Shown here in pieces: positions 9,475-46,262 of a DNA stretch of 64,000 bases. The position numbers and the translations under genes were made by a program. Each line of letters starts with the position of its first letter. Positions within the stretch are counted from its first letter, which is position 1. Source of the stretch: Sphingomonas changnyeongensis (GTDB lineage Bacteria; Pseudomonadota; Alphaproteobacteria; Sphingomonadales; Sphingomonadaceae). A model generated the notes under the pieces. That model was given only the letters and a program-made list of their open reading frames with translations. It made no database searches and was not told the origin of the DNA. The stretch is from contig NZ_CP047895.1 of the NCBI RefSeq assembly GCF_009913435.1, positions 442,501 through 506,500 of the forward strand. Reading direction: 5' to 3'.

Positions 9475-9650
9475 GTTGTTTGCTGCGCGCCTTGCGGCGC
9501 GGGGGCGGCACCGGCCCGCTCCCCCACCCGGCCTCCCAACGGCAGGATACGCTATGGGAGGCCGGGTGGGGAGCGGGCCGGTGCCGTTCTTCCCAATCAA
9601 CAAACTCCCGGTGCCGTTCTTCCGAACAAACAACGCCCGGCACCGCGACC
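9475..9650. repeat. Dispersed palindromic element, copy A
   Basis: The central hairpin has a 32-nt left arm at 9506-9537 and a 31-nt right arm at 9556-9586, starting CGGCACCGGCCCGCTCCCCC and closing with its complement around an 18-nt loop. A left satellite (GTTGTTTG then a small CGCGCC/GGCGCG-type hairpin) precedes it, and two copies of CGGTGCCGTTCTTCC follow. It fills the gap between convergent genes (Rieske and CoA-transferase). The right arm has one G fewer than the left arm requires. Five related copies occur at 13.2, 20.8, 39.2, 42.5 and 46.1 kb. Confidence 0.85.
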
Positions 9651-9665
9651 ACCGCAAACACCCCC

Positions 9666-10820
9666 TCACCCCCAGCGGGCAAGCGCCTCCTCCAATGCGA
9701 TCCGTTCGGCCGGGCGCGCAGCCGATGGCGCGTCGCGGAAGCGCGGCGCGGGGGCCGGCTGGGTGACGCCACCCAGCTCGACATAGCTTTGCCGGGCGCG
9801 GTTGTGCGGATGGTCGGGGGCTTCGGCAAAGCTCAGCACCGGCGTCACACAGGCGTCGGTATCGGCGAAATGCGCCGCCCAATGGTCGCGGTCCCTGGCC
9901 TTGAAACAGGCGGCGAAGGTCTCGGTCATCGCCGGCCAGCTCTTGAGGTCGAACTGCGGCCAGGCGGCGGGATCAAGCGCCAGCCCGGCGAGCAGGGCGG
10001 CATAGAATTGCGGCTCCAGACAGCCGACCGCGACATAGCGGCCATCGGCACATTCATAGCAGCGGTAAAACGGCGTCGCCCCGTCGAGCAGATTGGCCTG
10101 GCGGCGATCCTGCCAGCGGCCGCTCGCCAGAAAGGCGTGGAACATCGCCAGCAGGTTGATCGTCCCGTCGGTCATCGCCGCATCGACGACGTCCCCGGCC
10201 CCCGTGGTGCGCGCGCGCACCAGCCCGGCGAGCACGCCCGCGACCAGGAACATCGCCCCGCCGCCATAATCGCCGATCAGGTTGAGGGGCGGCGGCGGCA
10301 CCTCGCCGGCGCGGCCGATCGCGTGCAGCGCCCCGGTGAGCGAGATATAATTGAGATCATGGCCAGCGCGCGGGGCCATCGGCCCATGCTGCCCCCAGCC
10401 GGTCATGCGGCCATAGACGAGGCGCGGATTGACCGCGTGCACCGCCTCCGGACCCAGGCCCAGCCGCTCCATCACGCCCGGACGAAACCCCTCGAGCAGC
10501 GCATCGGCGCGGGCGAGCAGATCAAGCGCCGCGCCCCGCCCGGCATCGGATTTCAGGTCGACGCCCACGATCGTCCGCCCGCGATCGAGCACCGGCGCGC
10601 CCGGATCCTGGCTGCCCGGCCGGCCAAGCTGGACGATGTCCGCGCCCATGTCGGCAAGGATCATCGCGGCGAGCGGCACCGGCCCGATGCCCTCGAACTC
10701 GACGATGCGGACGCCGCTGAGCGGGCCGGAGCGTCCGGCATTCTGCTGTGGGGAACCGGCGGCCCGTTCGGGGGTGCCGGGGCGATCGCCGCTTTGCGGC
10801 TGGTTATCCTCTCCGTTCAT
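9666..10820 (-). CDS. CoA-transferase family III / alpha-methylacyl-CoA racemase-like protein
   Basis: 384 residues. After a polar N-terminal extension of about 32 residues comes the family III fold: GPLSGVRIVEFEGIGPVPLAAMILADMGADIV, DLLARADALLEGFRPGVMERLGLGP and the AMACR-like LVYGRMTGWGQHGPMAPRAGHDLNY. The Asp in AGHD is the usual catalytic carboxylate of AMACR-type enzymes. It probably epimerises 2-methylacyl-CoAs before beta-oxidation, but CoA transfer is possible. Two operator-like palindromes lie 22-60 nt upstream of the start. Confidence 0.88.
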   Translation of the reverse strand: MNGEDNQPQSGDRPGTPERAAGSPQQNAGRSGPLSGVRIVEFEGIGPVPLAAMILADMGADIVQLGRPGSQDPGAPVLDRGRTIVGVDLKSDAGRGAALDLLARADALLEGFRPGVMERLGLGPEAVHAVNPRLVYGRMTGWGQHGPMAPRAGHDLNYISLTGALHAIGRAGEVPPPPLNLIGDYGGGAMFLVAGVLAGLVRARTTGAGDVVDAAMTDGTINLLAMFHAFLASGRWQDRRQANLLDGATPFYRCYECADGRYVAVGCLEPQFYAALLAGLALDPAAWPQFDLKSWPAMTETFAACFKARDRDHWAAHFADTDACVTPVLSFAEAPDHPHNRARQSYVELGGVTQPAPAPRFRDAPSAARPAERIALEEALARWG

Positions 10821-10841
10821 GGCCGCAAGGCTCGGCCAAAG

Positions 10842-10880
10842 TTGACGTTTTCGTCAAGAGGAAGCTTACGGAAACGTCAA
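10842..10880 (-). promoter_or_regulatory. Tandem operator-like palindromes upstream of the CoA-transferase gene
   Basis: A perfect palindrome TTGACGTTTTCGTCAA (10842-10857) is followed 24 nt away, start to start, by the imperfect copy TTACGGAAACGTCAA (10866-10880). They sit 22 nt before the CoA-transferase start; the second overlaps the stop codon of the lipoprotein gene. Similar 16-bp sites serve TetR- or MerR-type regulators of acyl-CoA catabolism in proteobacteria; which regulator acts here is unknown. Confidence 0.5.
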
Positions 10881-11173
10881 TCGTCGCGCGGCGGGGCGCG
10901 CCGGGCCTCCTCCGCCGCCTCTTCCGCCTCCTCACGGGCGCGTTCGCGCTCGGCACGGCGGCGCTCCTTGGCGATCTGCTCCTCCTCCTTGCGAATCGCC
11001 CGGCCGCGATTGCGGTCGGCCTCGTCCTGGCTGGTGGTCAGCACATCGACGGTCTTGCTCACCGCCTTGACCGGCAGGGTCGCCGCATCGATCGCCGCCC
11101 GGGCGAGACACCCGCCCAGCATCGCGGGCAGCATCAGAATGACCAGCATCCGCGCCCGTTCGTGAACCCGCAT
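10877..11173 (-). CDS. Small predicted lipoprotein
   Basis: 98 residues. MRVHERARMLVILMLPAMLGGC is a short signal with a lipobox-like LGGC, so the mature protein would begin at a lipidated Cys. The second half is a very charged helix (RKEEEQIAKERRRAERERA), probably a coiled coil. Start 11173 has GGAG 7 nt upstream; an in-frame extension to 11365 would bury the signal and is rejected. Function unknown; family not recognised. Confidence 0.7.
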   Translation of the reverse strand: MRVHERARMLVILMLPAMLGGCLARAAIDAATLPVKAVSKTVDVLTTSQDEADRNRGRAIRKEEEQIAKERRRAERERAREEAEEAAEEARRAPPRDD

Positions 11174-11286
11174 CACTCCGCTCTCCTCGCCCGCTGCGCC
11201 CAGCCCCTTGCTCCGGGCTGGCCGGTGCCCGGAGCGGTTTGCGATCCCATTATATCGGATCGGCCACTCCAGGCTGCTGTTTTCCC

Positions 11287-11330
11287 GCATTTTCCGGATC
11301 GCCGGATGATTGGGCGCGGCTGGAAAATGC
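11287..11330. repeat. Inverted repeat GCATTTTCC / GGAAAATGC
   Basis: Perfect 9-nt arms at 11287-11295 and 11322-11330 separated by 26 nt, in the gap between the divergent lipoprotein and DUF885 genes. The rightward flank reads CTAGAGCATTTTCC on the minus strand, resembling the AGAGCGGTTTCC motif of the hairpins at 47.25 kb. It may be a small dispersed repeat or regulatory site. Confidence 0.4.
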
Positions 11331-11383
11331 TCTAGACCTGTGCGCCCGGCCCCGCGCCGGGACAAGGGGAGAATAGCCTGACC

Positions 11384-13195
11384 ATGCGCCGTCCGTCACC
11401 GCCGCCCGCCCGCCGCGCCCTGCGCGCTGCCGCCGCCCTGATTCTCGCCGCGCCAGCTCTGGCCCCCGTGACGGCATCCGCACAGACGCAGGACGGGGCC
11501 ACGCCCTCTGCCCGGCTGAAGGCGGTGATCGACGCGCACTGGGCCTGGTATCTGTCCCGCAACCCCGAACAGGCGACCGCGCTTGGCGTGCGCGATCATG
11601 ACGACCGGCTGTCGGACGTCAGCCTGGCCGCCGCCGATGCCGATGCGGCGACCGCGCAGCGTTTCGGCGCGCAGCTGGCGGCCATTCCCGACACCGGCCT
11701 GTCGCCGGCCGAGCGGGTGAACAAGCGCATCCTGGCCCGGCTGCTCGCCGAACAGGTCGAGGGCAATCGCTACGGCCAGCGGCAGATGCTGTTCACCAGC
11801 TATTATGGCTGGCATCAGGGCTTTGCCGGCATGGCCGACAATCTGCCCTTTGCCGCCGCCGCCGATTACCGCAGCTATCTGACGCGGCTCGGCCAATATC
11901 CGAAGCTGAACAGCGATGCGCTGGCGGTCACCCGGGCGGCGGTCGCGCAGGGGTTCGTTCAGCCCTGCGACGCGCTGCGCGGCTATGAAAAGACGATCAT
12001 CGGGGTCATCGCCCCCTCGCCCGACCAGTCGCGCTTCTACCAGCCCTTCACCCGCGCCCGGCCGCGCGACCTGTCGGAGGCCGAATGGGCGAAGATGCAG
12101 GACGAGGCGAAGCGGCTGATCACCACCGTGGTCGAGCCGGAATATCGCCGCTTCCACGATTATTTCGTCCGCGACTATCTGCCGCGCTGCCGCGCGACCG
12201 TGGGCGCGTCGGCGATGCCCGGCGGGGCGGACTGGTATGCGTTCCGCGCCCGGCAATCGACGACGACCGACAAGACCCCCGATGAGATCCACCGGATCGG
12301 CCTGGCCGAGGTCGCGCGCATCCGCGCGGAGATGGAAACCGTCGCCCGCGCCGCCGGCTTTGCCAGCCGCGAGGCGTTCATCGCCGATCTGCGCACCAAT
12401 CCGCGCCATTATGCGACGACGCCCGAGGCGCTGCTCGCCGCCGCCGCGGTCGAGGCCAAGCGCATCGACGGGCTGCTGCCGCGCTATTTCGGCCGGCTGC
12501 CGCGCCTCAGCTATGGCATCAAGCCGATCCCGGCCGAAATCGCCGAGGGGACGACCACCGCCTATTACAATCCGGGATCCCCGGCGGCGGGGATTTCCGG
12601 CACCTATTTCGTCAACACATCCAAGCTGGCGCAGCGGCCGCTCTGGGAACTGCCAGCGCTGACCGCGCATGAGTCGGTGCCGGGCCATCACTTCCAGGTC
12701 GCGCTGCAACAGGAACTGGAGCTGCCCGAGTTTCGCCGCCACCAGGCCGGCTTCACCGCCTTTGTCGAGGGCTGGGCGCTCTATACCGAGCGGCTGGGCA
12801 TCGAGATGGGGCTGTATGACACGCCCGAAAAGCAGATGGGGCGCCTGTCCTATGAAATGTGGCGGGCGTGCCGGCTGGTCGTCGACACCGGCATCCATGC
12901 CAAAGGCTGGACCAAGGCGCAGGCCGTCGCGTTCATGAAGGACAACAGCGCGCTAACCGACGCCAATATCGATGCCGAGGTCAACCGCTATATCAGCTGG
13001 CCGGGCCAGGCGCTCGGCTACAAGATGGGCGAGATCCGCATCCGGGAACTACGCGCCCGCGCCGAAGCCGCGCTCGGCCCGCGCTTCGACGTCAAGCGGT
13101 TCCACGATGCCGTGCTGGTCGAAGGGCCGGTGCCGCTCGACCTGCTGGAGACGCAGATCGACGCCTGGATCGCGGCCGAAAAGCTGCGGGGGTAA
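11384..13195 (+). CDS. DUF885 family exported metallopeptidase-like protein
   Basis: 603 residues. An N-terminal signal (RRALRAAAALILAAPALAPVTASAQ) is cleaved near residue 33. The C-terminal half bears a zinc-peptidase-like pair: HESVPGHH from His429, and FVEGWALYTERLG about 30 residues on, typical of DUF885 (M32/M3-like gluzincin fold). Proteins of this family are abundant in sphingomonads and are thought to be periplasmic peptidases; substrate unknown. GGGGAGA upstream supports the start. Confidence 0.88.
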   Translation: MRRPSPPPARRALRAAAALILAAPALAPVTASAQTQDGATPSARLKAVIDAHWAWYLSRNPEQATALGVRDHDDRLSDVSLAAADADAATAQRFGAQLAAIPDTGLSPAERVNKRILARLLAEQVEGNRYGQRQMLFTSYYGWHQGFAGMADNLPFAAAADYRSYLTRLGQYPKLNSDALAVTRAAVAQGFVQPCDALRGYEKTIIGVIAPSPDQSRFYQPFTRARPRDLSEAEWAKMQDEAKRLITTVVEPEYRRFHDYFVRDYLPRCRATVGASAMPGGADWYAFRARQSTTTDKTPDEIHRIGLAEVARIRAEMETVARAAGFASREAFIADLRTNPRHYATTPEALLAAAAVEAKRIDGLLPRYFGRLPRLSYGIKPIPAEIAEGTTTAYYNPGSPAAGISGTYFVNTSKLAQRPLWELPALTAHESVPGHHFQVALQQELELPEFRRHQAGFTAFVEGWALYTERLGIEMGLYDTPEKQMGRLSYEMWRACRLVVDTGIHAKGWTKAQAVAFMKDNSALTDANIDAEVNRYISWPGQALGYKMGEIRIRELRARAEAALGPRFDVKRFHDAVLVEGPVPLDLLETQIDAWIAAEKLRG

Positions 13196-13212
13196 GGCGG
13201 AAACAGGGGGCC

Positions 13213-13368
13213 GTTGTCTGCGGTGCGGCGTGCGTCGCAGGGGCGGCACCGGGGTTTTTGTTGCGCGCCTCGCGGCGCGGGGGCGGCACCGGCCCGCTCC
13301 CCCACCCGGCCACCCAACGGCAGTATCATATGGGTGGCCGGGTGGGGGAGCGGGCCGGTGCCGCGACC
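13213..13368. repeat. Dispersed palindromic element, copy B
   Basis: Central hairpin arms are 13284-13315 and 13332-13363, 32 nt each and perfectly complementary around a 16-nt loop. Two left satellites ending GGCGGCACCGG precede it, one beginning GTTGTCTG and one GTTGCGCGCC. Where other copies read CCTCCC / GGGAGG this copy reads CCACCC / GGGTGG, a paired change that keeps the stem. It separates the convergent DUF885 and typA genes. Confidence 0.85.
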
Positions 13369-13396
13369 AATTAAAAAACGCGCGGGCGTTCCCCGA

Positions 13397-15214
13397 TCAG
13401 GCCGCCTTGGCGCGCGACGCGCGCTTGCGCTCATGCGGGTCGAGATGGCGCTTGCGCAGCCGGATGCTCTTGGGCGTCACCTCGACCATCTCGTCATCGT
13501 CGATATAGGCGATCGCCTGTTCGAGCGTCAGCCGCCGGGGCGGGGTCAGCCGGATGGCGTCGTCCTTGCCGCCCGACGCACGGAAGTTGGTCAGCTGCTT
13601 CGCCTTCATCGGGTTGACTTCAAGGTCATCCGGCTTGGCGTTTTCGCCGATGATCATGCCTTCATAAAGCGGCTCGCCCGGGCCGACCATCAGCACGCCG
13701 CGGTCCTCGAGCGCGTTGAGCGCATAGGCATTGGCCTCGCCCGATCCGTTGGAGATCAGCACGCCGTTCTTGCGGCCCTCGATCGCGCCCTTGTGCGGGC
13801 CATAGCGTTCGAAGATGCGGTTCATGATCCCGGTGCCGCGCGTGTCGGACAGGAACTCGCCATGATAGCCGATCAGGCCGCGCGACGGCGCGGAGAAGGT
13901 GATGCGCGTCTTGCCGCCGCCCGAGGGGCGCATGTCGGTCATCTCGGCCTTGCGCTGGTTCATCTTGTCGACGACCGTGCCCGAATATTCCTCGTCCACG
14001 TCGATGACGACGGTTTCATAAGGCTCTTCGCGCCCACCCGGCCCGTCGCGGAACAGCACGCGCGGGCGGCTGATCCCCAGTTCAAAGCCTTCGCGGCGCA
14101 TCGTCTCGATCAGCACGCCGAGCTGGAGTTCGCCGCGCCCGGCGACTTCGAAACTGTCCTTGTCCTCGCTCTCGGTCACGCGGATGGCGACGTTCGATTC
14201 GGCCTCGCGCATCAGCCGGTCGCGGATCATGCGGCTGGTGACCTTGCTGCCCTCACGGCCCGCCATCGGCGAGTCGTTGACGGCAAAGCGCATCGACAGC
14301 GTCGGCGGATCGATCGGCTGCGCCTTGAGCGGCACGCTGACCGAGGTGTCGGCGATGGTGTTGGCGACGGTCGCGACCGTCAGCCCGGCCAGGCTGATGA
14401 TGTCCCCGGCGCGCGCCTCCTCGACCGGCACGCGCTCCAGCCCGCGAAACGCCATGATCTTGGTCGCACGGCCGGTTTCGATCACCTGCCCGTCGGAATC
14501 GAGCGCATGGATCGGCTGGTTGAGCCGCACGGTGCCGGTTTCGACCCGGCCGGTCAGGATGCGGCCAAGGAAGTTATCGCGGTCGAGCAGCGTGACGAGG
14601 AAGCTGAACGGCGCCTCGGCATCGACCTGCGGCTCAGGCACATGATCGATGATCTTGTCGAACAGCGGGGCGAGCGTGCCTTCGCGCGCCTCGGCATCCT
14701 CGGACGCATAGCCGTTGCGGCCCGAGGCATAGAGCACCGGGAAATCAAGCTGTTCGTCGGTCGCCTCAAGCGTCACGAACAGGTCGAACACCTCGTTCAG
14801 CACCTCCTCGACGCGCGAATCCGGCCGGTCGATCTTGTTGACGACCACGATCGGCCGGAGGCCGAGCGCCAGCGCCTTGCCGGTCACGAACTTGGTCTGC
14901 GGCATCGCGCCTTCGGACGAATCGACGAGCAGGATGACGCCGTCGACCATCGACAGGATGCGCTCCACCTCGCCGCCGAAATCGGCGTGGCCGGGCGTGT
15001 CGACGATGTTGATGCGCGTGCCCTTCCAGTCCACCGAGGTGCACTTGGCCAGGATGGTGATCCCGCGTTCCTTTTCCAGATCGTTCGAATCCATCGCGCG
15101 TTCCTCGACGCGCTGATTGTCGCGGAACGTCCCCGACTGGCGGAACAACTGGTCGACGAGCGTGGTCTTGCCATGATCGACATGCGCGATGATGGCCACG
15201 TTGCGGAGGCTCAT
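13397..15214 (-). CDS. typA: Ribosome-associated GTPase TypA/BipA
   Basis: 605 residues, full length. The translational GTPase has G1 AHVDHGKT (residues 10-17), the switch text [10 protein letters not shown]3 [10 protein letters not shown] and G4 NKIDR, followed by EF-G-like domains and the BipA-specific C-terminal domain ([21 protein letters not shown]). It assists 50S assembly at low temperature and under stress. AGGA 6 nt before the ATG fits as ribosome site. It ends against repeat copy B. Confidence 0.96.
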
Positions 15215-15302
15215 GGGAAATCCTGGTTCGAGCGGAGATTGGCCGCGCCCTTAGCGCAAATGCTGCGGCGCGCAAAGCCCGGCCGCGCAGCGCACCCCGG
15301 CT

Positions 15303-16106
15303 TCAGCCCGTCCGCTGCGCCAGCGCGGCGATTTCCTTGACCAGCTTGGCCGCAACCGTCGCGGTCATGCCATTGAGGTCGCGCGCCGGATTGAGCTCGA
15401 CAATGTCCGCGCCGACCAGCGGTCCGGGGATGCGGGCGATGAGGTCGAGCAGCTGGCGCGTCGACAGGCCGCCCGGTTCATGATGCGCGACCCCGGGGGC
15501 AAAGGCGGGGTCCAGCCCGTCCAGATCGACCGACAGGTAAAGCGGCCCGGCGGGCACCGGCACGCCGGCGGGCGTGAAATCGCGCATCGGCACCACCTCG
15601 ATCCCGAACCGCGCGACCTGCGCCGCCTGATGGGCATTGAGCGTGCGGATGCCGACCTGGACCAGCCGGGTCGCCAGCCCGTCCTCCATGATCCGCGCGA
15701 ACGGCGAGGCGTGCGAGCGGCGATTGCCGCCCAGTTCGTCATAACAGTCCGAATGCGCGTCGATATGCAGGATCGCGACCAGCCCGTGCACGGCGGCGAT
15801 CCCGCGCAGCACCGGATAGGTGACGGCATGGTCGCCGCCCAGGCAGATCGGCACGCCGCCGCCTGCACAGGCGTCGCGCACCGCCGCCACGATCCGCGCG
15901 TCATCGGCCGCGCAATCCTCGGTCAGCGGCAGGTCGCCCAGATCCTCAAACGGGATGTCGCGGCCCAGTTCCAGCCCGCATTCGGCAGCCGGATTGCCCA
16001 TGTCGGACAGGAGCGCGGCGCGGATCAGCGGCGGCGCAGCAGCCGCGCCGCGCAGGAAGCTGGAGTTGATGTCGGTCGGCAGGCCGATCAGGCGGACGGG
16101 GCGCAT
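15303..16106 (-). CDS. Arginase/agmatinase family hydrolase
   Basis: 267 residues. The ureohydrolase fold has manganese ligands visible in CLGGDHAVTYP, HIDAHSDCYDE and SVDLDGLDPAFAPGV. It would hydrolyse a guanidino compound to urea plus amine; the text fits agmatinase or a guanidino-acid hydrolase better than classical arginase, but substrate loops cannot be judged by eye. It lies 9 nt downstream of the EamA transporter gene and is probably cotranscribed with it. Confidence 0.88.
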   Translation of the reverse strand: MRPVRLIGLPTDINSSFLRGAAAAPPLIRAALLSDMGNPAAECGLELGRDIPFEDLGDLPLTEDCAADDARIVAAVRDACAGGGVPICLGGDHAVTYPVLRGIAAVHGLVAILHIDAHSDCYDELGGNRRSHASPFARIMEDGLATRLVQVGIRTLNAHQAAQVARFGIEVVPMRDFTPAGVPVPAGPLYLSVDLDGLDPAFAPGVAHHEPGGLSTRQLLDLIARIPGPLVGADIVELNPARDLNGMTATVAAKLVKEIAALAQRTG

Positions 16107-16115
16107 GGCTGATCC

Positions 16116-16976: not shown

Positions 16977-17082
16977 CCCCGCCCTCCCTTACGCAACAGC
17001 CCGGATGCGCGCGGAGATGCACCGGAAAGCCGCCGGGGGCCAGAGCGGAGCCACGGGCAGACCGATTGCCTGGGGGACTCCG

Positions 17083-17274: not shown

Positions 17275-17392
17275 ACCGGGCCGGGACAGCCCCGGCACCG
17301 ATCAACGCACGACGGCGTTCGGCGAAAGTCGCTTGAACGGCGACCGGCAGGGCCTAATCTTTCCCGGCCTCAAGGGCGGGAGACGACAGGTT

Positions 17393-19281: not shown

Positions 19282-19350
19282 CCGGCAGCGCGTGACCGGC
19301 GGCGCTTGACCGGCAAAGAATGACTGGCGGGAACCCCGCCAGTCCCCTGC

Positions 19351-20832: not shown

Positions 20833-21020
20833 GGTTTTTTGTCGCGCGCCTCACGGCGCGGGGGGCGGAGTTGTTTGCGGTGCGGCTTACGCCGCACGGG
20901 CGGCACCGGCCCTCACCCCACCCGGCCTCCCATCGACAGGATATGCTATGGGAGGCCGGGTGGGGGTGAGGGCCGGTGCCGTTCTTCCCACTCAACAAGC
21001 GCCCGGTGCCGTTCTTCCCA
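20833..21020. repeat. Dispersed palindromic element, copy C
   Basis: Left arm 20901-20931 and right arm 20950-20981, around an 18-nt loop. Relative to other copies the left arm has TCACC for GCTCC and the right arm has GGTGA for GGAGC, so the changes are matched and the stem is retained. It carries both types of left satellite (TCACGGCGCG hairpin and GTGCGGC/GCCGCAC hairpin) and two right satellites CGGTGCCGTTCTTCCC. It lies between the convergent L,D-transpeptidase and DUF2256 genes. Confidence 0.85.
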
Positions 21021-21021
21021 G

Positions 21022-21159
21022 CTAACCACTCCCAGTGCGCCGGCAGCGCTCCGAACAATATTTGACCTGATCCCAGTCGCGCGCCCATTTCTTGCGCCAC
21101 GCGAACGGGCGCTGGCACACCGGGCACATTTTTTCGGGCAGATGGGGTTTCTTATGCAT
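21022..21159 (-). CDS. DUF2256 zinc-ribbon-like small protein
   Basis: 45 residues, starting [20 protein letters not shown] and ending in RRTGSG. The Cys pattern [14 protein letters not shown]...YCSERC (two pairs) is the DUF2256 signature, probably one zinc site. The text [21 protein letters not shown] is highly conserved in this family, whose role is unknown. It ends 2 nt from repeat copy C, and the tRNA-Gln gene lies 55 nt upstream on the same strand. Confidence 0.9.
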
Positions 21160-37141: not shown

Positions 37142-37327
37142 TGAGCAGCTTTCCTGGGTTTTGAGGGTGTTTGAAAATCGCGCCGCCATAGCGGAGCGGG
37201 GCCGAAAAGGCAAAGGCCGCCGGGGGGAAGGCATCCGTTCCCCGATCCGTCCGTCCCCAAGCCGGTTGACGCCGCGCCCGGCGCGGGGATGATGCGCGGC
37301 GACACAAGCCGGGAAAGGAAGGGGTGG

Positions 37328-38310
37328 ATGCGCAGCTTTGCTGCAGGCGCGCTGGCGCTGATCATGGCGGGCGGTGCGGCCCTGCCGGGTGCGGCGACGG
37401 CGCAGGGTTTTGCCGTGCCGCCCGTGCAGATGGCCGAGCCCGGCGATGCCGGCCGGCGAATCGAAGCCGACGGGCTGATCGGCAACTGGTTTCCGCCCGC
37501 CGGGCCGGCAGTCGCAACGCCCGCCGCGCGCCGGCCGGCGATCCTGCTGCTCGGCGGGTCGGAAGGCGCGCTTTCGGCATCGGGCGTGCGCATGGCGCGG
37601 GCGCTAAGTGCGCTCGGTTACGGCGTGCTGCAGCTGTCCTATTTCCGCGCGCCCGGCCAGTCGGCCTCGCTGGAGCTGGTGCCGCTTGAGATGTTCGACC
37701 GCGCGCTTGGCTGGATCGGTCAGCAGCCCGGCATCGACCGCCGCCGCCTGGGCGTGATCGGTATCTCCAAGGGCGGCGAAGCGGCGCTGCTCATCGCCAG
37801 CCGCAACACAAGGCTGCGCGCGGTCATCGCGGCGGTGCCGTCCCATGTCGCCTGGCCGGGCGTGGTCTGGGACGGCGCATGGGGCACACCGCCCAAGCCA
37901 TCCTGGTCGGTAGGCGGACAGCCGGTGCCGGTCGTGCCCTATGGCGCGTTTGACGGGGCGGGCGGCATCCGGTCGGTCTATGAAAATGGGCTGAAAGCGC
38001 TGGCTGACCATCCGGGGCGGTCATCCCGCTGGAGCGCGCGCGCGCCCGCATCCTGCTGGTGTGCGGCGAGGCCGACAGCCTGTGGCCCGGCTGCCCGATG
38101 GCGCGGGAAGCGGCGGCGCGGGCGGGCAAGCGGGCCGAAGTCCGCGCCTATGCCGATGCCGGGCATCTGGCGTTCGGCCTGCCGATCGATCCCAAATCGC
38201 CAGGCTTTGGCCAGCTTGCCAGCCTTGGCGGCACCGCCGAGGGCAATCATGCCGCCCGCACCGACAGCTGGGCGCGCGCGCAGGCATTTCTGGCCGAGGC
38301 GTTCAAATGA
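37328..38310 (+). pseudogene. Exported BAAT/acyl-CoA thioester hydrolase-like alpha/beta hydrolase, frameshifted as read
   Basis: A signal peptide (residues 1-26, ending GAATAQ) is followed by an alpha/beta hydrolase of BAAT_C type: [15 protein letters not shown], nucleophile loop GISKGGEAALLIAS, then, after a shift at the four-G run 38014-38017, LLVCGEADSLWPGCPMA (Asp) and DAGHLAFGLP (His). With one G added the gene is 327 residues. Nucleophile Ser in GxSxG, Asp and His are all present. It may hydrolyse acyl esters or thioesters in the periplasm. AAGGAAGGGG precedes the ATG. Confidence 0.75.
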
Positions 38311-39164
38311 GCACCGCACCGGCCATCGGCGCAGCGCAGGGCGCGGACGGGACCAGCCAGCCGACCGGATTCGGCGCGCTGATCGCGGCGCTGACCCCGC
38401 TTGACCGGGCCGACGGCAGCACAGCCGGACTGACGACCGAATTGCCCGAAAACTGGACGCAGGGGCGCACCGCTTATGGCGGGCTGTCGGCCGCCTTGTG
38501 CGTGGAAGCCGCGCGGCGCATGGCCGCGGATCTGCCGCCGCTGCGCTCCGGCCAGTTCGCCTTTGCAGGGCCAGCCGCCGGGCGGCTGGACATCCGGCCG
38601 GAGCTGGTGCGGCGCGGCCGCTCGGCCGCCACCATGGCCGTGGCGCTCGACGGCGATCAGGGACCGGCGGTGCGCGCGCTGCTGACCTATGGCGCCGCGC
38701 GCGACAGCCGGGTCGGTCATGACAGCCTGGCCGCACCGGACGTGGCCGGGCCGGATGACTGCCCGGCCTTTTTCCCCTCAGGCGGCGGCCCGCGCTTTGC
38801 CGCGAACATGGAGATGCGCCTTGCCGCCGGCAACCGGCCGCTGGCGGGCGGCGATCCCGCCTTCTGGCTGTGGGTGCGCCACCGCGCGCCGGACGGGGCC
38901 GATCCGCTGACCGCCCTTGTCGCGCTCGCCGATTCGCCGCCGCCCGCCGCCATGGTCGGCTTTCCCGCCCCCGCGCCGATCAGCACCATGACCTGGACGC
39001 TCGATCTGCTCGGCGATCCGGGCGATGATCCGGGGGTGTGGCGGCTGCTGCATTCGGTGAGCGAACAGGCAGGCCATGGCTATTCGGCGCAGGCGATGAC
39101 GCTGTGGGACGCGGACCGCCGCCCGCTTGCCGTTGCCCGGCAGATGGTCGCGCTGTTCACCTGA
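38307..39164 (+). CDS. Thioesterase superfamily protein (double hotdog, TesB-like)
   Basis: 285 residues. It shows two hotdog halves: TELPENWTQGRTAYGGLSAALCVEAARRM in the first and ISTMTWTLDLLGDP to HGYSAQAMTLWDADRRPLAVARQMVALF in the second; the last stretch is the common end of acyl-CoA thioesterase II-like proteins. Overlaps the previous hydrolase gene by 4 nt (ATGA), so the two act in the same pathway, probably acyl-CoA turnover. Exact substrate unknown. Confidence 0.82.
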   Translation: MSTAPAIGAAQGADGTSQPTGFGALIAALTPLDRADGSTAGLTTELPENWTQGRTAYGGLSAALCVEAARRMAADLPPLRSGQFAFAGPAAGRLDIRPELVRRGRSAATMAVALDGDQGPAVRALLTYGAARDSRVGHDSLAAPDVAGPDDCPAFFPSGGGPRFAANMEMRLAAGNRPLAGGDPAFWLWVRHRAPDGADPLTALVALADSPPPAAMVGFPAPAPISTMTWTLDLLGDPGDDPGVWRLLHSVSEQAGHGYSAQAMTLWDADRRPLAVARQMVALFT

Positions 39165-39176
39165 ACGGGGTGATGA

Positions 39177-39312
39177 TTGTTGCGCGCCTCACGGCGCGGT
39201 CGCGGCACCGGCCCGCTCCCCCACCCGGCCTCCCAACGGCAGTATCATGTGGGAGGCCGGGTGGCGGAGCGGGCCGGTGCCGCGACAGCAAAGACTCCCG
39301 GTGCCGGTCTTC
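39177..39312. repeat. Dispersed palindromic element, copy D
   Basis: Arms 39203-39234 and 39251-39282, 32 nt each, with a single mismatch (GTGGCGGAG in the right arm), around a 16-nt loop. One left satellite (CGCGCC TCAC GGCGCG hairpin) and one right satellite (CGGTGCCGGTCTTCGC). Lies between the convergent thioesterase and S1/P1 nuclease genes. Confidence 0.85.
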
Positions 39313-39330
39313 GCTAAACAGCGAACACCG

Positions 39331-40152
39331 CTATCTGGCGAACAGCCGGTCGAGATAGGCGGCGATGCGGATGCCGGCCTGTTGCAGACGCCGGTCGACG
39401 ACCGGCTGCTGGGCAAAGGCATAGGCAAAGGACAGATCGGGCCGGGCCGGATACAGGCCGTCGCGCAGCGCGGCGCTCTCGGCGATCCACACCGCCGGAT
39501 CGGCTGACCACCACGCGACCATATCGGCCGGGGCGATGCGGCGGTCGAGCCAGTCGGCATATTCGGAAAAACTCAGGCCGTTGCGCGCGATCAGGCCGCT
39601 GTCCCACAGCGCATGCAGGTTGGTCGGCTCGCCGAAAAAGCTGATCGCGACATCATTGCCGCCCTTGTCGCGGCCATTGCCGACATGAAAGGGCTGGTGA
39701 AGATCGCCGACGATATGGACGATGAAGCGCAGCGCCAGCTGCCGGTCGGCGCGGCTGGCGGCGGGGTTGCGCAGCGTCGCTGAAAAACGCGCCAGCGCGC
39801 TTGCCGCATCGCCTTCGGGCGGGGTGGTGTCGGGGCCGTGCGCCTTGCCGGGCGGCACCGTCACATAATGCCAGGGATTGGCGGTCTTCTGCCAGAACTC
39901 CGACGGGTCCGACCGCATCTCATCGGCCCAGGTCGCGGCTTCGGCCAGGCTTTCATCGCCCAGGATCAGCCGGATCTGCGCCCGCGCCAGCCCGCCCAGA
40001 TGACGTTCGGCGATCGCGCCGGTGACGCGGTGGCCGGTCTGCCCCCAGGCAAAAGCCGGCTGGGCGCAGGCAAGCGAGAGCGGCAGCGCGAACAGGGCCG
40101 CCAGCCGGCGGAACCGGCGGGCGAGAGCACGAGACGAAAACGGGTCGGTCAT
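39331..40152 (-). CDS. S1/P1 family nuclease
   Basis: 273 residues. A signal peptide ends AQPAFA, leaving a mature N-terminal Trp in WGQTGHRVTG, the hallmark of S1/P1 nucleases whose amino-terminal Trp ligates zinc. Further ligands appear in TWADEMRSD, NPWHYVTVPP, FIVHIVGDLHQPFHVG and GNDVAISFFGEPTNLHALWDSG. A secreted zinc nuclease or 3'-nucleotidase for single-stranded nucleic acid. Start 40152 is chosen because the longer in-frame start at 40218 would place 22 polar residues before the signal. Confidence 0.92.
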   Translation of the reverse strand: MTDPFSSRALARRFRRLAALFALPLSLACAQPAFAWGQTGHRVTGAIAERHLGGLARAQIRLILGDESLAEAATWADEMRSDPSEFWQKTANPWHYVTVPPGKAHGPDTTPPEGDAASALARFSATLRNPAASRADRQLALRFIVHIVGDLHQPFHVGNGRDKGGNDVAISFFGEPTNLHALWDSGLIARNGLSFSEYADWLDRRIAPADMVAWWSADPAVWIAESAALRDGLYPARPDLSFAYAFAQQPVVDRRLQQAGIRIAAYLDRLFAR

Positions 40153-40192
40153 CCGGCGCAGATGCCGCGCCGGTGTGACATTTTTGGGGCAT

Positions 40193-40239
40193 GAAAAACC
40201 CGCCCGGTCCGGCCGCACGGGGCGGCAGGACCGGGCGGG
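40193..40239 (-). terminator. Intrinsic terminator of hppA
   Basis: Perfect 12-bp stem CCCGCCCGGTCC (40199-40210) / GGACCGGGCGGG (40228-40239) with a 17-nt loop, followed on the minus strand by GGTTTTTC. It lies 33 nt after the hppA stop. Confidence 0.85.
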
Positions 40240-40271
40240 CGAAGGTTCAGCCCGTCAGGCTGCGCGCCGGA

Positions 40272-42419
40272 TCAATGGACCCCGCCCGCCAGCGCCGCCA
40301 GCAGCAGCAGCGCGACGATGTTGGTGATCTTGATCATCGGATTGACCGCCGGGCCGGCGGTGTCCTTGTAGGGATCGCCGACCGTGTCGCCGGTCACCGC
40401 GGCCTTGTGCGCCTCGGATCCCTTGCCGCCATGATGGCCGTCCTCGATATATTTCTTGGCATTGTCCCACGCGCCGCCGCCCGATGTCATCGAGATCGCG
40501 ACGAACAGGCCGGACACGATCACGCCCAGCAGCAGCGCACCCAGAGCGGCAAAGCCATTGGCCTGGCCCGCCACCTGAGTGATGATGAAATAGACGGCGA
40601 TCGGGGCGAGCACCGGCAACAGGCTGGGCACGATCATTTCCTTGATCGCCGCCTTGGTCACCAGATCGACGGTGCGCGCATAATCGGGCTTGGACGTGCC
40701 CGCCATGATCCCCTTGTTGTCGCGGAACTGGGCGCGGACCTCCTCGACCACCGCCCCGGCGGCGCGGCCGACAGCGGTCATCCCCATCGCCCCGAACAGA
40801 TAGGGCAGCAGCGCGCCGAGCAGCAGCCCGACGATGACATAGGGGTTGCTGAGCGAGAAATCGACGGTCAGCCCGGGAAAGAACGCGCTGAGATCGGTCG
40901 TGTAGGCGCCGAACAGCACCAGGGCCGCCAGCCCGGCCGAGCCGATCGCATAGCCCTTGGTGACCGCCTTGGTCGTGTTACCGACCGCGTCGAGCGCATC
41001 GGTGCGGTTGCGCACCTCGCCCTCCAGCCCCGCCATTTCGGCGATGCCGCCGGCATTGTCGGTCACCGGCCCATAGGCGTCGAGTGCCACGACCATGCCC
41101 GCGAGCGCCAGCATCGCGGTCGCGGCAAAGGCGATGCCGATGATGCCCGCGATCTGATAGGTGGCGACGACCGCGACGACGATGACCAGGGTCGGCAGCG
41201 CGGTCGATTCAAGGCTGATCGCCAGCCCCTGGATCACATTGGTGCCATGGCCGGTTTCCGACGCCTTGGCGATCGACTTGACCGGGCGATAGCCGGTGCC
41301 GGTGTAATACTCGGTGATCCACACGATCAGCCCGGTCACGGCCAGCCCGATCAGCATGCACCAGAACAGCTGCCAGCCGGTAAAGCTCGGCCCGGCGGCG
41401 TCGGCCCCGGCGATGAACGGCTCGTCACCGGCAAAGCCCGCGCCGCCGATCACCGTGTTCATATCGCCAAGCGTTAGCTGGGTCGCGCCATAGAGCAGCG
41501 GGATCGACAGCAGGGCGGTGCCCCAGAAGCCCTTGTAGAGCGCCCCCATGATCGACTGGCTGCCGCCCAGGCGGACCAGATAGGTGCCGATGATCGACGC
41601 GATGATGCACACGCCGCCGGCAACCAGCGGCAGCGCCATCAGCTTCATCAGATCGGGCGCCTCGGCCCGCACCAGCAGCGCGACCGACACCATCGTCACG
41701 CCCAGCGTCACGACATAGGTTTCAAACAGGTCGGCAGCCATGCCGGCACAGTCGCCGACATTGTCGCCGACATTGTCGGCGATCACCGCCGGGTTGCGGG
41801 GATCGTCCTCGGGAATGCCCGCCTCGACCTTGCCGACCAGATCGGCGCCGACATCGGCCGCTTTGGTGAAGATGCCGCCGCCCAGACGCGCGAAGATCGA
41901 GATCAGCGACGCGCCGAACGACAGCGCGACCAGCGCGTCGATGACCTGCCGGTCACCGGGGGCCAGCCCCTGAATGTCGGTCAGCCCATAGAAAAACCCG
42001 GCAATCGCCAGCAGCCCCAGCCCGGCGACCAGCATGCCGGTGACCGCGCCCGAACGAAAGGCGACGGTCAGCCCAGCCTGCAGACTGGTCCGCGCCGCTT
42101 CGGCCGTGCGGACATTGGCGCGCACCGAAATGTTCATGCCGATATAGCCGGCCACCCCCGACAGCAGCGCCCCGACGACGAAGCCGAGCGCCGAGATCCG
42201 CCCCAGAAACACCGCCACGAGCACCGCCACGACAATACCGACAATGGCAATGGTCCGGTATTGCCGCCCCAGATAGGCCTTTGCGCCTTCCTGGATCGCG
42301 CCCGCAATCTCCTGCATCCGGGCATTGCCCGCAGGCTGTGCCAGAATCTGGCGACTGGTGATCAAGCCATACAAGACTGCAAGGACGCCGCAGCCTATCG
42401 CGATCAAAATCACGTTCAT
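40272..42419 (-). CDS. hppA: Membrane-bound proton-pumping pyrophosphatase
   Basis: 715 residues, sixteen or so membrane helices. Pyrophosphate-binding motifs are present: [35 protein letters not shown] and, near the end, [16 protein letters not shown] and [14 protein letters not shown]. The Lys in GNTTKA is the residue that marks K+-independent H+-PPases (Ala in K+-dependent ones). Located in the inner membrane, it uses PPi to build proton force. Codirectional with thiL but separated by repeat copy E. Confidence 0.96.
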
Positions 42420-42528
42420 GCCATCCCTTCCCTGTTGGCGGCTCTTTGGCGGCCGCTTGTTCTGGACAAAGGTATGAGAGGCGAAACCGCAGGCGGCAAG
42501 CCGCGAATGGCGGGGGGTGGGGAGCGGG

Positions 42529-42770
42529 GTTGTTTATGGTGCGGCTGACGCCGCGGGGGCGGCACCGGAAGTTGTTTGTGGTGCGGCTCACGCCGCACGG
42601 GCGGCACCGGCCCGCTCCTTGTTGTTTGTTGCGCGCCTTACGGCGCGTGGGCGGCACCGGCCCGCTCCCCCACCCGGCCTCCCAACGGCAGATTACGCTA
42701 TGGGAGGCCGGGTGGGGGAGCGGGCCGGTGCCGTTCTTCTCAAACGAAAACACCCAGTGCCGTTCTTCCC
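42529..42770. repeat. Dispersed palindromic element, copy E (three left satellites)
   Basis: Main arms 42652-42683 and 42702-42733, 32 nt each and fully complementary around an 18-nt loop. Three tandem satellites precede, each with GTTGTTTR and a small hairpin and ending GGCGGCACCGG (start about 42529, 42571 and 42619); two of them also carry a truncated arm (CCCGCTCCTT). Right satellites CGGTGCCGTTCTTCTC and CAGTGCCGTTCTTCCC follow. It fills the 365-nt gap between hppA and thiL; no gene is present there. Confidence 0.85.
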
Positions 42771-42784
42771 AGCCAACAGCCCGT

Positions 42785-43657
42785 TCAGTGGCTCCAGCCG
42801 AGCCGGTCGGGCAGCGGCACGGCGCGGCCATGATCGCTGAGCGTCAGCCCCGCGCCCGCCGCGAACCGGCCGATCGCCGTCGCCGCGACCGGCGGGTCGA
42901 TGCCGTCGGGCAGCGCGAACAGCAGTTCATAATCATCGCCCGCCGTCACCGCGCCGAGCGGATCGCCGCACACCGGCACGAGGTCGAGCGCGATGGCCAC
43001 GCCCAGCCCGCTTGCAGCCGCCATGCGCGCGGCATCGATCAGCAGCCCGTCCGACACGTCCATCATCGCATGGACAATGGGCGCGAGCAGCCGCCCCTCG
43101 GCCAGCCGCGGCTGCGGCCGGCGATAGGCGGCAAGTTCCGGCCCGTCCCGGCCCGTGCGCGCAAGCTCCAGCCCGATCCCGGCGGCACCGATCCGCCCGG
43201 TCACCCACAGCCGGTCCCCCGGCTGCGCGCCGCTGCGCGACGGGGCGATGGGCGCGCGACCGATCGCCGTCAGCCCCAGGCTGCGCGGCCCTTGATGGCG
43301 GACCGTGTCGCCGCCCAGCAGCGCCACGCCGAACGCGGCCAGCGCCTCCCCCAGCCCGGCGACAAAGCCATGGTCCCACGCGCCGTCGCCGAGCGGATAG
43401 CCGATCAGGCAGCCGATCGGCGTCGCGCCCTTGGCGGCAAGATCCGACAGATTGACCGCCAGCAGCTTCCACGCGACATCGCCGGGCGGATCGCCGGGCA
43501 GGAAATGCACGCCCTCGACGATCATGTCATGGGTGAACACCAGATCGCCGAGCACGGCCGCATCATCGGCAAGGCCGCGCGCGGCGGGATCGGTCGCGAG
43601 GCCGCGCAGCGCGGCGATGAAGCCGGCTTCGTCCAGAACCGGCCCTGCCCCGCTCAG
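42785..43657 (-). CDS. thiL: Thiamine-monophosphate kinase
   Basis: 290 residues if started at a CTG overlapping the nusB stop (CTGA at 43657-43654). The N-terminal GLADDAAVLGDLVFTHDMIVEGVHF holds the metal-binding Asp pair of ThiL; later come LAVNLSDLAAKGATP, ALLGGDTVRH, MMDVSDGLLIDAARMA and VTAGDDYELLFALP. It phosphorylates thiamine monophosphate to the diphosphate. A GTG inside the metal motif would cut it off, and no ATG in frame is upstream, so the non-standard start is inferred. Family and body are certain. Confidence 0.85.
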   Translation of the reverse strand: MSGAGPVLDEAGFIAALRGLATDPAARGLADDAAVLGDLVFTHDMIVEGVHFLPGDPPGDVAWKLLAVNLSDLAAKGATPIGCLIGYPLGDGAWDHGFVAGLGEALAAFGVALLGGDTVRHQGPRSLGLTAIGRAPIAPSRSGAQPGDRLWVTGRIGAAGIGLELARTGRDGPELAAYRRPQPRLAEGRLLAPIVHAMMDVSDGLLIDAARMAAASGLGVAIALDLVPVCGDPLGAVTAGDDYELLFALPDGIDPPVAATAIGRFAAGAGLTLSDHGRAVPLPDRLGWSH

Positions 43658-44106
43658 CGGCGCACATCCTTGGCGACCGCATCGAGCAGGCCGTTCACGA
43701 ACGCGGTTTCCTTGCGGTCGTAAAAGGCATGGGCGACGTCGACATATTCGCTGATCACCGAGCCGACCGGCACATCGGCGCGCGCGATCAGCTCATAGGT
43801 GCCGGCGCGCAGGATCTGGCGCATGGGCCGGTCGAGCCGGTCGAGGTTCCAGCCCTGGGCCAACCGGGCGGCGATCAGCGTGTCGATTTCGGCCCGCCGC
43901 GCCGCGACGCCCTTGACGACATCGTCGAAAAAGCCGGTTTCGGCATCGGCATATTCGTCGCCCTCGATCGTCGCGCCCAGCCGGTGCTGGTGAAACTCGG
44001 CGATCAGCTGCGGCAGCGGGGTCTGCTCCATCTCCAGCTGGTAAAGCGCCTGCACGGCGGCAAGCCGGGCGGCGGAACGGGAACGGGCTCTTTCGTTCTT
44101 GGTCAT
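43654..44106 (-). CDS. nusB: Transcription antitermination factor NusB
   Basis: 150 residues, all helical. It begins [26 protein letters not shown] and has the C-terminal RMILRAGTYELIAR-like text (RQILRAGTYELIARADVPVGSVISEYVDVAHAF) typical of NusB. Binds boxA RNA with NusE to prevent early termination in rRNA operons. Overlaps hisD by 4 nt and thiL by 4 nt, so it is part of the hisG-hisD-nusB-thiL transcript. Confidence 0.96.
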   Translation of the reverse strand: MTKNERARSRSAARLAAVQALYQLEMEQTPLPQLIAEFHQHRLGATIEGDEYADAETGFFDDVVKGVAARRAEIDTLIAARLAQGWNLDRLDRPMRQILRAGTYELIARADVPVGSVISEYVDVAHAFYDRKETAFVNGLLDAVAKDVRR

Positions 44107-45392
44107 CTGTCCAGTCTCAACGCGACCGAGCGGCCATGGGCGGGCAGCCCCTCGGCATCGGCAAGCGCCACGGCCGCGGGGCCGAGCGCCGCCAGCGCGC
44201 CGGGGGAGCAGCCGAGAAAGCTCGTCCGCTTCATGAAATCGAGCACCGACAGGCCCGAGGCGAAACGCGCCCGGCGGCCGGTCGGCAGCACATGGTTGGG
44301 GCCGCCCAGATAATCGCCGATCGCCTCGGGCGTGTGGCGGCCAAGAAAGATCGAGCCGGCATGGCGCACGGCCGCGAACAGCGGCTCGGGATCCGCGACG
44401 GCAAGTTCGAGATGCTCGGCTGCCAGCCGGTCGATCAGCGGCACCGCCGCCATCAGATCGGGGACGACAATGATCGCACCGTTGCGGTCCCAGCTTTCGC
44501 GCGCGGTGGCGGCGGTGGCGAGCAGGGGGATCTGCGCGTCGACCGCAGCCGCCACCCGGTCGGCAAAGCCGGCATCGTCGGTGATCAGGATCGACTGGCT
44601 GGTCGGATCATGTTCGGCCTGGCTGAGCAGGTCGGCGGCGATCCAGTCAGGGTCGTTGCCGCTGTCGGCGACGACCAGGATTTCGGACGGACCGGCGACC
44701 ATGTCGATGCCGACGACGCCGTAAAGCTGGCGCTTGGCCTCGGCGACCCAGGCATTGCCGGGGCCGACGATGACATCGACGGGCGCGATCCGGCCGGTGC
44801 CATAGGCAAGGGCGGCCACGCCCTGCGCGCCGCCGACGCGCCAGATCTCCTCGATGCCGACCAGCGCGGCGGCGGCGAGCACCAGCGGGTTGACGACGCC
44901 GTCCGGCGTCGGGGTCACCATCGCCAGCCGGCCGACGCCGGCGACGCGCGCCGGCACCGCGTTCATCAGCAGCGAACTGGGATAGGCGGCGCGCCCGCCC
45001 GGCACGTAAAGCCCGGCGGCATCGACCGGCCGCCAGCGCGCGCCGATGCGCACGCCCATCGCATCGACCTCGTCCCGGTCGGCGGGGCGCTGTTTTTCAT
45101 GATAGGCGGTGATGCGGGCATGCGCGAGTTCGAGCGCGCGGCGCAGCTCGCGGTCCAGCCCGTCAAGCGCCGCCCGGCAATCGGCGGGATCGATCCGCCA
45201 GCCGCCGGCGTCCAGATCATGCCGGTCGAACCGGCCGGTCAGGTCGATGAGCGCGGCATCGCCCTCGTCGCGCACACGGGCAAGGATCGCCGCCACGTCG
45301 CGCGACACATCGTCGGCGCTTTCGCGGCGCGCGCCGACCAGCGCGTCGAAACGGGCGGCGAAAGCGGGGTCGGCAAGGGACAGGCGGATCAT
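44103..45392 (-). CDS. hisD: Histidinol dehydrogenase
   Basis: 429 residues. NAD-dependent, makes histidine from histidinol in two steps. Visible signatures: [23 protein letters not shown], the substrate region [17 protein letters not shown], and [19 protein letters not shown] with the conserved zinc/catalytic Glu and His; later [12 protein letters not shown] and [19 protein letters not shown]. Overlaps hisG by 4 nt. Confidence 0.97.
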
Positions 45393-46057
45393 GCAGCGGC
45401 TTCCGACAGGCTGGCGGCGCGGCGCACCGCATCCACGATCGGGGCGATCGCGGCGGCACGCATCTTGAACGCCGCCCGGTTAACGATCAGGCGGGCGCTG
45501 ACCTCGGCAATCACCTCAACCTCGACCAGCCCGTTTTCCTTGAGCGTGCGCCCGGAGGACACGAGGTCGACGATGCGGCTCGACAGGCCGAGCAGCGGGG
45601 CCAGCTCCATCGCGCCGCTGAGCTTCACGCATTCGGCCTGCACGCCGCGCGCCTCGAAATGGCGGCGGGTCAGTGCCGGATATTTGGTCGCGACGCGGAC
45701 ATGGCTCCAGGCGCGCGGATCATCGCCCGCGGCCATTTCGGCGGGTTCGGCGACCGACACCCGGCAATGGCCGATGCCCAGATCGACGGGCGCGTAGAGT
45801 TCGGAATAGTCGAACTCCATCAGCACGTCGGACCCGACAATCCCCAGCTGCGCCGCGCCATGCGCGACAAAGGTCGCGACGTCGAACGCGCGCACGCGGA
45901 TCAGCGAGACGTCGGGCAGGTTGGTCGCAAAGCGCAGCGCGCGGCTGTTCTTGTCGCCAAATGCCGGTTCGGGAACGATGCCGGCGCGCGCGAGCAGCGG
46001 CAGCGCCTCGTCCAGAATCCGGCCCTTGGGCACGGCGATGATGATGGGATCGGCCAT
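45389..46057 (-). CDS. hisG: ATP phosphoribosyltransferase, short form
   Basis: 222 residues. First enzyme of histidine synthesis. [18 protein letters not shown] and [10 protein letters not shown], then [19 protein letters not shown] and [27 protein letters not shown] are HisG signatures. The length lacks the C-terminal regulatory domain of long HisG, so this is the short form, which needs HisZ as regulatory subunit; no hisZ was seen in the window. Probably the first gene of the operon; the 213-nt upstream gap holds repeat copy F. Confidence 0.95.
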
Positions 46058-46124
46058 GGCCGCGCGGCTTTACGCGCAGGCGGGGGCAAGGGCAACATGG
46101 GGGGCGGTGCGGGCTGTGGTTGAC

Positions 46125-46262
46125 TGTTGCCTGTCGCGGCATCGGCCCGCTCCCCCACCCGGTCGCCCAGCGCCAGCATCATTTGGGAGGCCGGGTGGGG
46201 GAGCGGGCCGGTGCCGCCCGTGCGGCGAGAGCCGCACCACAAACAACTCCCGGTGCCGCGAC
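46125..46262. repeat. Dispersed palindromic element, copy F (inverted satellite)
   Basis: Arms 46137-46168 and 46185-46216, 32 nt, with three mismatches. The downstream satellite (GTGCGGC GAGA GCCGCAC, then ACAAACAACT) is the reverse complement of the left satellites of the other copies, so this copy is partly inverted. It lies between the alpha/beta hydrolase 3' end and hisG start, both on the minus strand. Confidence 0.8.

What the first reader, a model, noticed from the sequence alone, without database searches (positions are those of the whole stretch)
9475..46262. Six-copy family of large palindromic intergenic elements
Copies A (9475-9650), B (13213-13368), C (20833-21020), D (39177-39312), E (42529-42770) and F (46125-46262) share about 31-32-nt arms that start CGGCACCGGCCCGCTCCCCC, pair with GGGAGGCCGGGTGGGGGAGC, and enclose a loop of AACGGCAG type. 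The sequence itself shows them. They are too long and GC-strong for ordinary terminators and resemble REP/BIME or MITE elements, but no transposase is in the window. All six lie directly 3' of a gene and none inside one.
Basis: partly seen in the sequence, partly recalled or inferred. Interest (0 to 1): 0.75.

Follow-up and report, generated by a model that had tools for sequence, protein, structure and literature searches.

The report
Palindromic MITEs at gene stop codons
The six hairpin repeats are worn copies of a tiny parasitic DNA element, found in sphingomonads and some other alphaproteobacteria, whose intact relatives often sit exactly at gene stop codons and share their ends with a full-sized transposon that probably moves them.

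Summary
In detail: six near-perfect palindromes (cores 82-84 nt, arms about 34 nt) lie where stated, and at least 70 distinct copies were found in this genome. The core occurs patchily in Sphingomonadaceae and in some other alphaproteobacteria. In Sphingobium and relatives it is the middle of a 153-154 bp element with terminal inverted repeats GAGTCYGTTTGG and a 3-bp TNA target duplication: 11 of 28 complete elements have identical flanking triplets (shuffle mean 4.0). At one site six other Sphingobium genomes show the uninserted form with a single TAA. In 18 of 28 a stop codon of a long open frame lies exactly at a junction, against 17.5% and 23.5% of control sites. IS5-family elements with the same ends and TNA duplications exist. 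So the family is a MITE, probably moved by an IS5/IS1031-type transposase. It is not REP/BIME: no RAYT match in this genome or in high-copy G021. The window's copies are eroded, some nested, without clean duplications; 13 of 21 congener copies examined touch a copy at the same place here. The core keeps C-runs and G-runs more strictly than pairing requires; any host function is unproven.

The parts
9473..9504 (+). copy A, left module: TIR-like GAGTTGTTTG plus small hairpin
   Evidence: sequence
9505..9587 (+). copy A, core palindrome (one-base deletion in the right arm)
9588..9650 (+). copy A, right modules (TTCTTCCC-CAAC repeated)
13213..13282 (+). copy B, two tandem left modules with small hairpins
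13283..13364 (+). copy B, core palindrome, 34-nt arms fully complementary; an identical 96-nt stretch lies at C1:214374
20839..20899 (+). copy C, left modules
20900..20983 (+). copy C, core palindrome with an arm variant changed on both sides (CCCTCACCCC / GGGGTGAGGG)
20984..21030 (+). copy C, right modules
39178..39201 (+). copy D, left module
39202..39283 (+). copy D, core palindrome; same site occupied in congener G003 (L072/L243)
39284..39312 (+). copy D, right module remnant
42529..42650 (+). copy E, three tandem left modules including an outer-arm remnant CGGCACCGGCCCGCTCC: nested element
42651..42734 (+). copy E, core palindrome
42735..42780 (+). copy E, right modules including outer-arm remnant CAGTGCCG
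46136..46217 (+). copy F, core palindrome, left arm with several unpaired changes
46218..46262 (+). copy F, right module = reverse complement of a usual left module, ending CAAACAACTC

Best explanation
A MITE: a non-autonomous element of about 140-155 bp. Two terminal inverted repeats (GAGTCYGTTTGG type) close a predicted stem carrying small hairpins and, in the middle, the 82-nt core palindrome. An IS5-family (IS1031-like) transposase that recognises the same termini probably inserts it in trans at TNA targets (CTAG in some lineages), duplicating 3 bp (the duplication is shown, the enzyme is inferred). TNA is rare in these genomes and includes the stop triplets TAA and TGA and their complements. 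Insertion there duplicates or rebuilds the stop codon and spares the gene, so elements accumulate at gene 3' ends (position shown, reason inferred). The window's copies are old members whose ends have eroded and been reshaped by nesting and tandem duplication of the flanking modules (inferred); many are inherited at fixed sites.
For: Complete elements: among 152 core hits (some places fetched twice) 28 distinct elements have both TIRs at 148-159 bp; 11 of 28 have identical 3-mers outside (shuffle mean 4.04, 1 of 5000 shuffles reaches 11); TNA at 21 of 28 left and 17 of 28 right ends against a background of 0.027. Empty sites: Sphingobium sp. 15-1 L135 GTCTAA[154 bp]TAAGACGG; six other Sphingobium genomes have one TAA and no element there. 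Stop codons: 18 of 28 have a stop of an open frame of 100 or more codons exactly at a junction, against 0.175 of random TNA sites (n 3000) and 0.235 of CTNAG sites (n 162). CTAG on both sides in 4 of 46 G021 copies and 3 of 115 named copies, random 0.0006 and 0.00015. IS with the same ends: L478 905 bp, GAGTCCGTTTGGAAAATC / GAGGCTGTTTGGAAAATC, TCA|TCA; L480 and L482 TTA|TTA; L478 protein PF13340+PF01609, NF033580. Predicted folds. Two annotated plasmids have the core between converging CDS, gaps 163 and 156 bp.
Against: The other 124 of 152 core hits (including places fetched twice) did not show both TIRs by my score. The window genome's own copies show TIR-like ends on both sides in 14 of 70 and no TNA duplication. 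No IS with GAGTC ends was found at the loci of this genome examined (L412/L508, L420, L432); its 1.27-Mb copy and two weak C2 hits were not examined. IS5 transposase counts do not track copy number: G003 has none, G021 two matches. 17 of 28 complete elements lack identical triplets. A looser first test was not significant. Where G003 has a core and this genome has none, the whole spacer differs, so no clean junction is seen in the window's own genus. At the L135 site the TAA ends only a 41-codon open frame.
Confidence: 0.85

Rival explanations
1. REP/BIME family spread by a RAYT tyrosine transposase.
For: Intergenic palindromes 3' of genes, tandem and mosaic arrays, many copies.
Against: No Y1_Tnp match in G000 or G021; complete relatives have DDE-type TIRs and TNA duplications.
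Confidence: 0.04
2. Host-selected 3'-end elements: bidirectional terminators or mRNA-end barriers kept by selection, of MITE origin or not.
For: 13 of 21 G003 elements touch an element at the same place here; of 65 classed copies 29 convergent, 35 tandem, 1 divergent, against 27, 98, 27 background gaps; changes on both arms; C/G-run conservation beyond pairing.
Against: No T-run after the hairpin in the copies read; no copy found in four congeners; paired changes can also come from copying one arm onto the other; location can be explained by the target plus loss of insertions inside genes.
Confidence: 0.3
3. The core moves separately from its ends: a palindrome exchanged between different carrier elements by recombination or template switching.
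For: Core conserved while subterminal hairpins and termini differ by lineage; core replaced by a small hairpin at one orthologous site and absent with modules left at another; arm remnants outside the core in 14 of 48 G021 and 10 of 71 G000 copies.
Against: In the complete TNA-type elements core, hairpins and ends form one unit of about 153 bp with duplications outside it.
Confidence: 0.25

Closest known systems
IS5-family insertion sequences with GAG.CYGTTTGGAAAATC ends (IS1031 group by recall; here L478, L480, L482)
   Same: Same terminal 12 or more bp and 3-bp TNA duplications. A Leifsonia paper names a 3-nt insertion site as a common feature of the IS1031 group (PMC2516522, passages).
   Different: The IS codes for a transposase (L478, L480; no gene is listed in L482); the MITE shares the ends, its interior is hairpins.
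Prokaryotic MITEs (review PMC10969869, passages)
   Same: Short, non-coding, TIRs, direct repeats; truncated copies can come to resemble REPs.
   Different: Conserved 82-nt near-perfect core palindrome shared across genera and families; stop-codon junctions. The word stem 'sphing' does not occur in that review's main text.
REP/BIME and RAYT (PMC3733652, start of abstract, passages)
   Same: Palindromic, extragenic.
   Different: REPs are 20-40 bp with a GTAG or CGTC tag, GTAG ones tied to RAYTs; here an 82-nt core and no RAYT match.
Rickettsia palindromic elements (passage in PMC10969869)
   Same: About 150 bp palindromic elements of Alphaproteobacteria.
   Different: Those are described inside genes; these lie at gene ends. 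Sequences were not compared here.

Membership tests
MITE | terminal inverted repeats | tested here: met
   28 distinct complete elements among 152 core hits; in the window genome only TIR-like motifs, 14 of 70
MITE | target-site duplication | tested here: met
   family: 11 of 28 identical triplets, shuffle mean 4.04; six empty sites with one TAA. Not met for the window genome's copies
MITE | short, non-coding | tested here: met
   141-154 bp made of hairpins; coding capacity was not searched separately
MITE | autonomous element with the same ends exists | tested here: met
   L478, L480 (genes); not found at the examined loci of the window's own genome
MITE | transposition shown | not testable with these tools
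   only sequence footprints
derivative of the IS5 family, IS1031 group | ends and TNA target like the group | tested here: met
   that the group has a 3-nt target is from PMC2516522, that it is TNA is recalled
derivative of the IS5 family, IS1031 group | transposase of that group acts on it | not testable with these tools
   inferred from shared ends
REP/BIME | RAYT (Y1_Tnp) in the genome | tested here: not met
   0 matches in G000 and G021; one below the cut-off in G003
REP/BIME | 20-40 bp with GTAG/CGTC tag at one end | tested here: not met
   82-nt core; no such tag seen by eye at core or element ends
intrinsic terminator | GC hairpin followed by a T-run | tested here: not met
   in the copies read the right arm is followed by TTCTTCCC, GACC or CCCC-type sequence; the promoter/terminator scan was not run
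known Rfam RNA | match at gathering score | tested here: not met
   only two tRNAs in the window

The most novel reading that the evidence does not exclude
The core palindrome is a functional module under selection and not just MITE filling. Across Alphaproteobacteria its C-runs (5' arm) and G-runs (3' arm, a four-tract G-quadruplex pattern on each strand) are kept while the letters between them change in step on both arms. The element would then be a parasite that survives by inserting at stop codons and supplying a two-way barrier (hairpin or quadruplex) between neighbouring genes, later fixed as a host 3' end.
Probability: 0.3. Interest if true: 0.75.

Novelty: new variant of a known kind. 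Interest (0 to 1): 0.56.

Why it matters
It gives an origin for a common repeat of sphingomonad genomes (at least 70 copies here, 48 in 315 kb of G021), explains why such palindromes sit at stop codons, names a testable transposase partner, and fits the contig breaks seen at these palindromes in the congener's assembly. If the core is functional it would be a natural two-way gene insulator.

Tried and rejected
RAYT search: no match in G000 or G021. Search for IS ends around 30 PF13340 loci by generic inverted repeats gave mostly chance-like pairs; one useful, L424 of Novosphingobium rosa (GAGGCTGTTATGGAC, ACTA|TAGG). The first TSD test with a looser end search was not significant (named loci 19 rows, 6 equal, shuffle mean 3.8, 119 of 1000 shuffles reach it; G021 1 of 7, G000 1 of 5, G016 1 of 2); the test on complete elements came after it and is the one I rest on. 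Phage records: no match. Viral contigs: 8 stretches on 7 contigs hold the arm, not examined further. Plasmids: 3 records, 12 places; one of the three has no gene table. The first 20 kb of contig C2 as a route to a name gave only a short IS5-transposase piece in 9 records. Seven of the eight joined-flank queries gave no interpretable empty site: two hit other dispersed repeats, five matched only themselves or nothing spanning the junction. G-run test: the 43 pattern-found cores are forced to match in the inner 5' arm, so I repeated it on the 32 cores not found by the pattern; some of these built the model, and cells are not independent by descent. Formation of a quadruplex is doubtful because the full hairpin is very stable (my judgement). 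Gene context uses a crude frame caller that missed a real gene (38061-39164 beside D) and puts 6 of 71 copies inside an open frame; these six were not resolved, so 'none inside a gene' is not established genome-wide. The arm-remnant count uses fragments chosen from G000 and G021, so its 0 of 119 for named loci is biased low. In some searches I looked at the wrong coordinates of L090, so occupancy of site B in G003 was not verified; site C was not tested. Papers: listings (no hit); passages. None of what I saw describes this element; the library holds open-licence papers only.
Full report
OBSERVATION. Reading the six places, repeat search, folding and a profile search confirm six copies of an 82-84-nt near-perfect palindrome: arm CGGCACCGGCCCGCTCCCCCACCCGGCCWCCC, loop AACGGCAGTATCATAT or AACGGCAGGWTACGCTAT in most, and the complementary arm. 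Each core is flanked by modules: on the left GTTGTTTG, a small hairpin, CGGCACCGG; on the right CCGGTGCCG, TTCTTCCC or a small hairpin, CAAC. Changes in one arm are often matched in the other.

EXTENT. In the window's genome (2.87 Mb + 0.14 Mb) one search scored 40 of 126 first-look candidates and lists 40 distinct full-length places; 71 distinct copies were gathered from held stretches. A 399-kb spread sample held 7 plus one weak hit. All listed places are on C1, none on C2 (both lists capped). By DNA, 13 of 40 genomes match, own included; by a covariance model 19 of 59, own included, with high counts in G003, G021, G048 and G035 and no match found in the congeners G001, G002, G004, G005. In a class-wide draw 18 of 289 genomes match, own included. 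Contig lengths of G003 (12752, 27523, 12100) equal those of Sphingomonas sp. UBA1000, so G003 is probably that metagenome bin (inference).

NOT A REP. No Y1_Tnp match in G000 or G021; one below the cut-off in G003.

WHOLE ELEMENT. In Sphingobium and relatives the core is the middle of a unit with ends GAGTCYGTTTGG. Among 152 core hits in 114 pattern loci, 28 model loci and four G016 loci (some places fetched twice), 28 distinct elements have both ends at 148-159 bp by my score; the rest were dropped because they did not. Of the 28, 11 have the same triplet on both sides (shuffle mean 4.04, 1 of 5000 reaches 11), and TNA stands at 21 left and 17 right ends against 0.027 background. An earlier, looser version of the test was not significant. 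A complete 141-bp relative with ends GAGACCGTTTGAG and TGA|TGA occurs in another family of the class (L484). In G021 and in Sphingomonas flavalba some copies have CTAG on both sides: 4 of 46 G021 copies and 3 of 115 named copies (L124 is S. flavalba; L210 has the same sequence as L381 of that genome; the source of L207 was not listed); random 0.0006 and 0.00015.

EMPTY SITE. Flanks of eight elements were joined without the element and searched in ten genomes. The site of L135 is uninterrupted in six other Sphingobium genomes (L438, L442, L443, L444, L445, L459; 83-88% identity), each with one TAA where L135 has TAA on both sides of 154 bp. The other seven queries gave no clear empty site.

STOP CODONS. 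At 18 of 28 complete elements a stop codon of an open frame of at least 100 codons falls exactly at a junction; random TNA sites give 0.175 and CTNAG sites 0.235. Whether each frame is a real gene was not tested. In ten junctions the element's terminal G or C completes the stop (frames of 100 or more codons). Of three plasmid regions fetched, one has no gene table and two show the core between converging CDS with gaps of 163 and 156 bp. TNA covers TAA, TGA and their complements, and CTAG holds TAG on both strands; with loss of insertions inside genes this explains the position without host benefit (inference).

PARTNER. The 40-nt end consensus matched 8 plasmid records; in the S. fuliginis record the end follows the 3' end of an IS5-family transposase frame. 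Of eight loci then examined four gave a pair of ends: L478 (Sphingobium sp. AntQ-1, 905 bp, TCA|TCA), L480 (Mesorhizobium huakuii, TTA|TTA), L482 (Croceicoccus marinus, TTA|TTA, no gene listed inside) and L483 (Komagataeibacter xylinus, triplets not equal). The L478 protein matches PF13340, PF01609 and NF033580. NF033580 matches 33 of 59 genomes: own genome 12 matches, G003 none, G021 two, so transposase presence does not track copy number.

HISTORY IN THE WINDOW'S LINEAGE. The congener G003 is occupied at D by alignment and at A, E and F by element pieces or contig breaks at the palindrome. B and C were not verified. In one search, 13 of 21 G003 hits have a held G000 flank and all of these touch or lie beside a G000 element; two of them are the two sides of one G000 site (L006), and one contig (L252) joins flanks that in G000 lie at two different elements (rearrangement or misassembly). 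For the other eight, one search found G000 places: three lack the element (L241, L244, L249), one has only modules (L242), one has the core replaced by a small hairpin (L250), one neighbour gene is inverted (L246), two could not be judged (L253, L257). Loss in G000 and gain in G003 were not told apart. The window genome's copies have TIR-like ends on both sides in 14 of 70 and no TNA duplication. Arm remnants outside the core, a sign of nesting, are in 14 of 48 G021, 10 of 71 G000 and 0 of 119 named copies (the last biased low). Copy E, read by eye, is an example.

STRUCTURE. Four of five complete elements folded give a stem of the two ends with three hairpins, L393 folds differently, and L484 gives two hairpins. 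On 24 cores 8 pairs show changes on both sides, 31 cells (shuffle 7.2). In 32 cores not found by the pattern, pairs with G on the 3' arm are unchanged in 637 of 668 cells, pairs with C there in 161 of 220; a four-G-run pattern is kept in 29 of 32 (null mean 13.0, max 23 of 2000 draws). A hairpin alone gives no reason for this asymmetry. Descent and search bias remain as caveats.

VERDICT. A MITE family not found described in my searches, with an IS5-type partner: ordinary in mechanism, unusual in its conserved core, its reach and its stop-codon junctions.

Noticed in passing
window 11225-11350 and about 47236-47350: A second dispersed intergenic repeat; several copies in the congener G003, partial matches in the G000 sample.
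   Followed up: partly
L203, L452, L454, L349 and others: Sphingobium genomes and G021 carry another inverted-repeat family (CGTCACCCTGAACTTGTTTCAGGGTCC...); the MITE of L203 lies inside one.
   Followed up: partly
L161 left flank, query 626-704: A further dispersed repeat with many hits in several of the Sphingobium genomes searched.
   Followed up: no
L246 (G003) against L354 (G000): A gene next to a palindrome is inverted between the two congeners, as if recombination had used the palindromes.
   Followed up: partly
L252 (G003): One contig joins flanks that in G000 lie at two different palindromes (L313, L326): rearrangement or misassembly.
   Followed up: no
L058 and L059: Relatives of the palindrome seem to lie in the rpsL-rpsG spacer of two genera (protein ends recognised by eye and recall), inside an operon.
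   Followed up: no
G000 C1 about 1.875-2.41 Mb and contig C2: No copies among those listed (capped lists); three of the genome's IS5-type transposases lie in this stretch.
   Followed up: no
L233-L240: Eight stretches on seven IMG/VR viral contigs carry the arm; whether these are real viruses was not checked.
   Followed up: no
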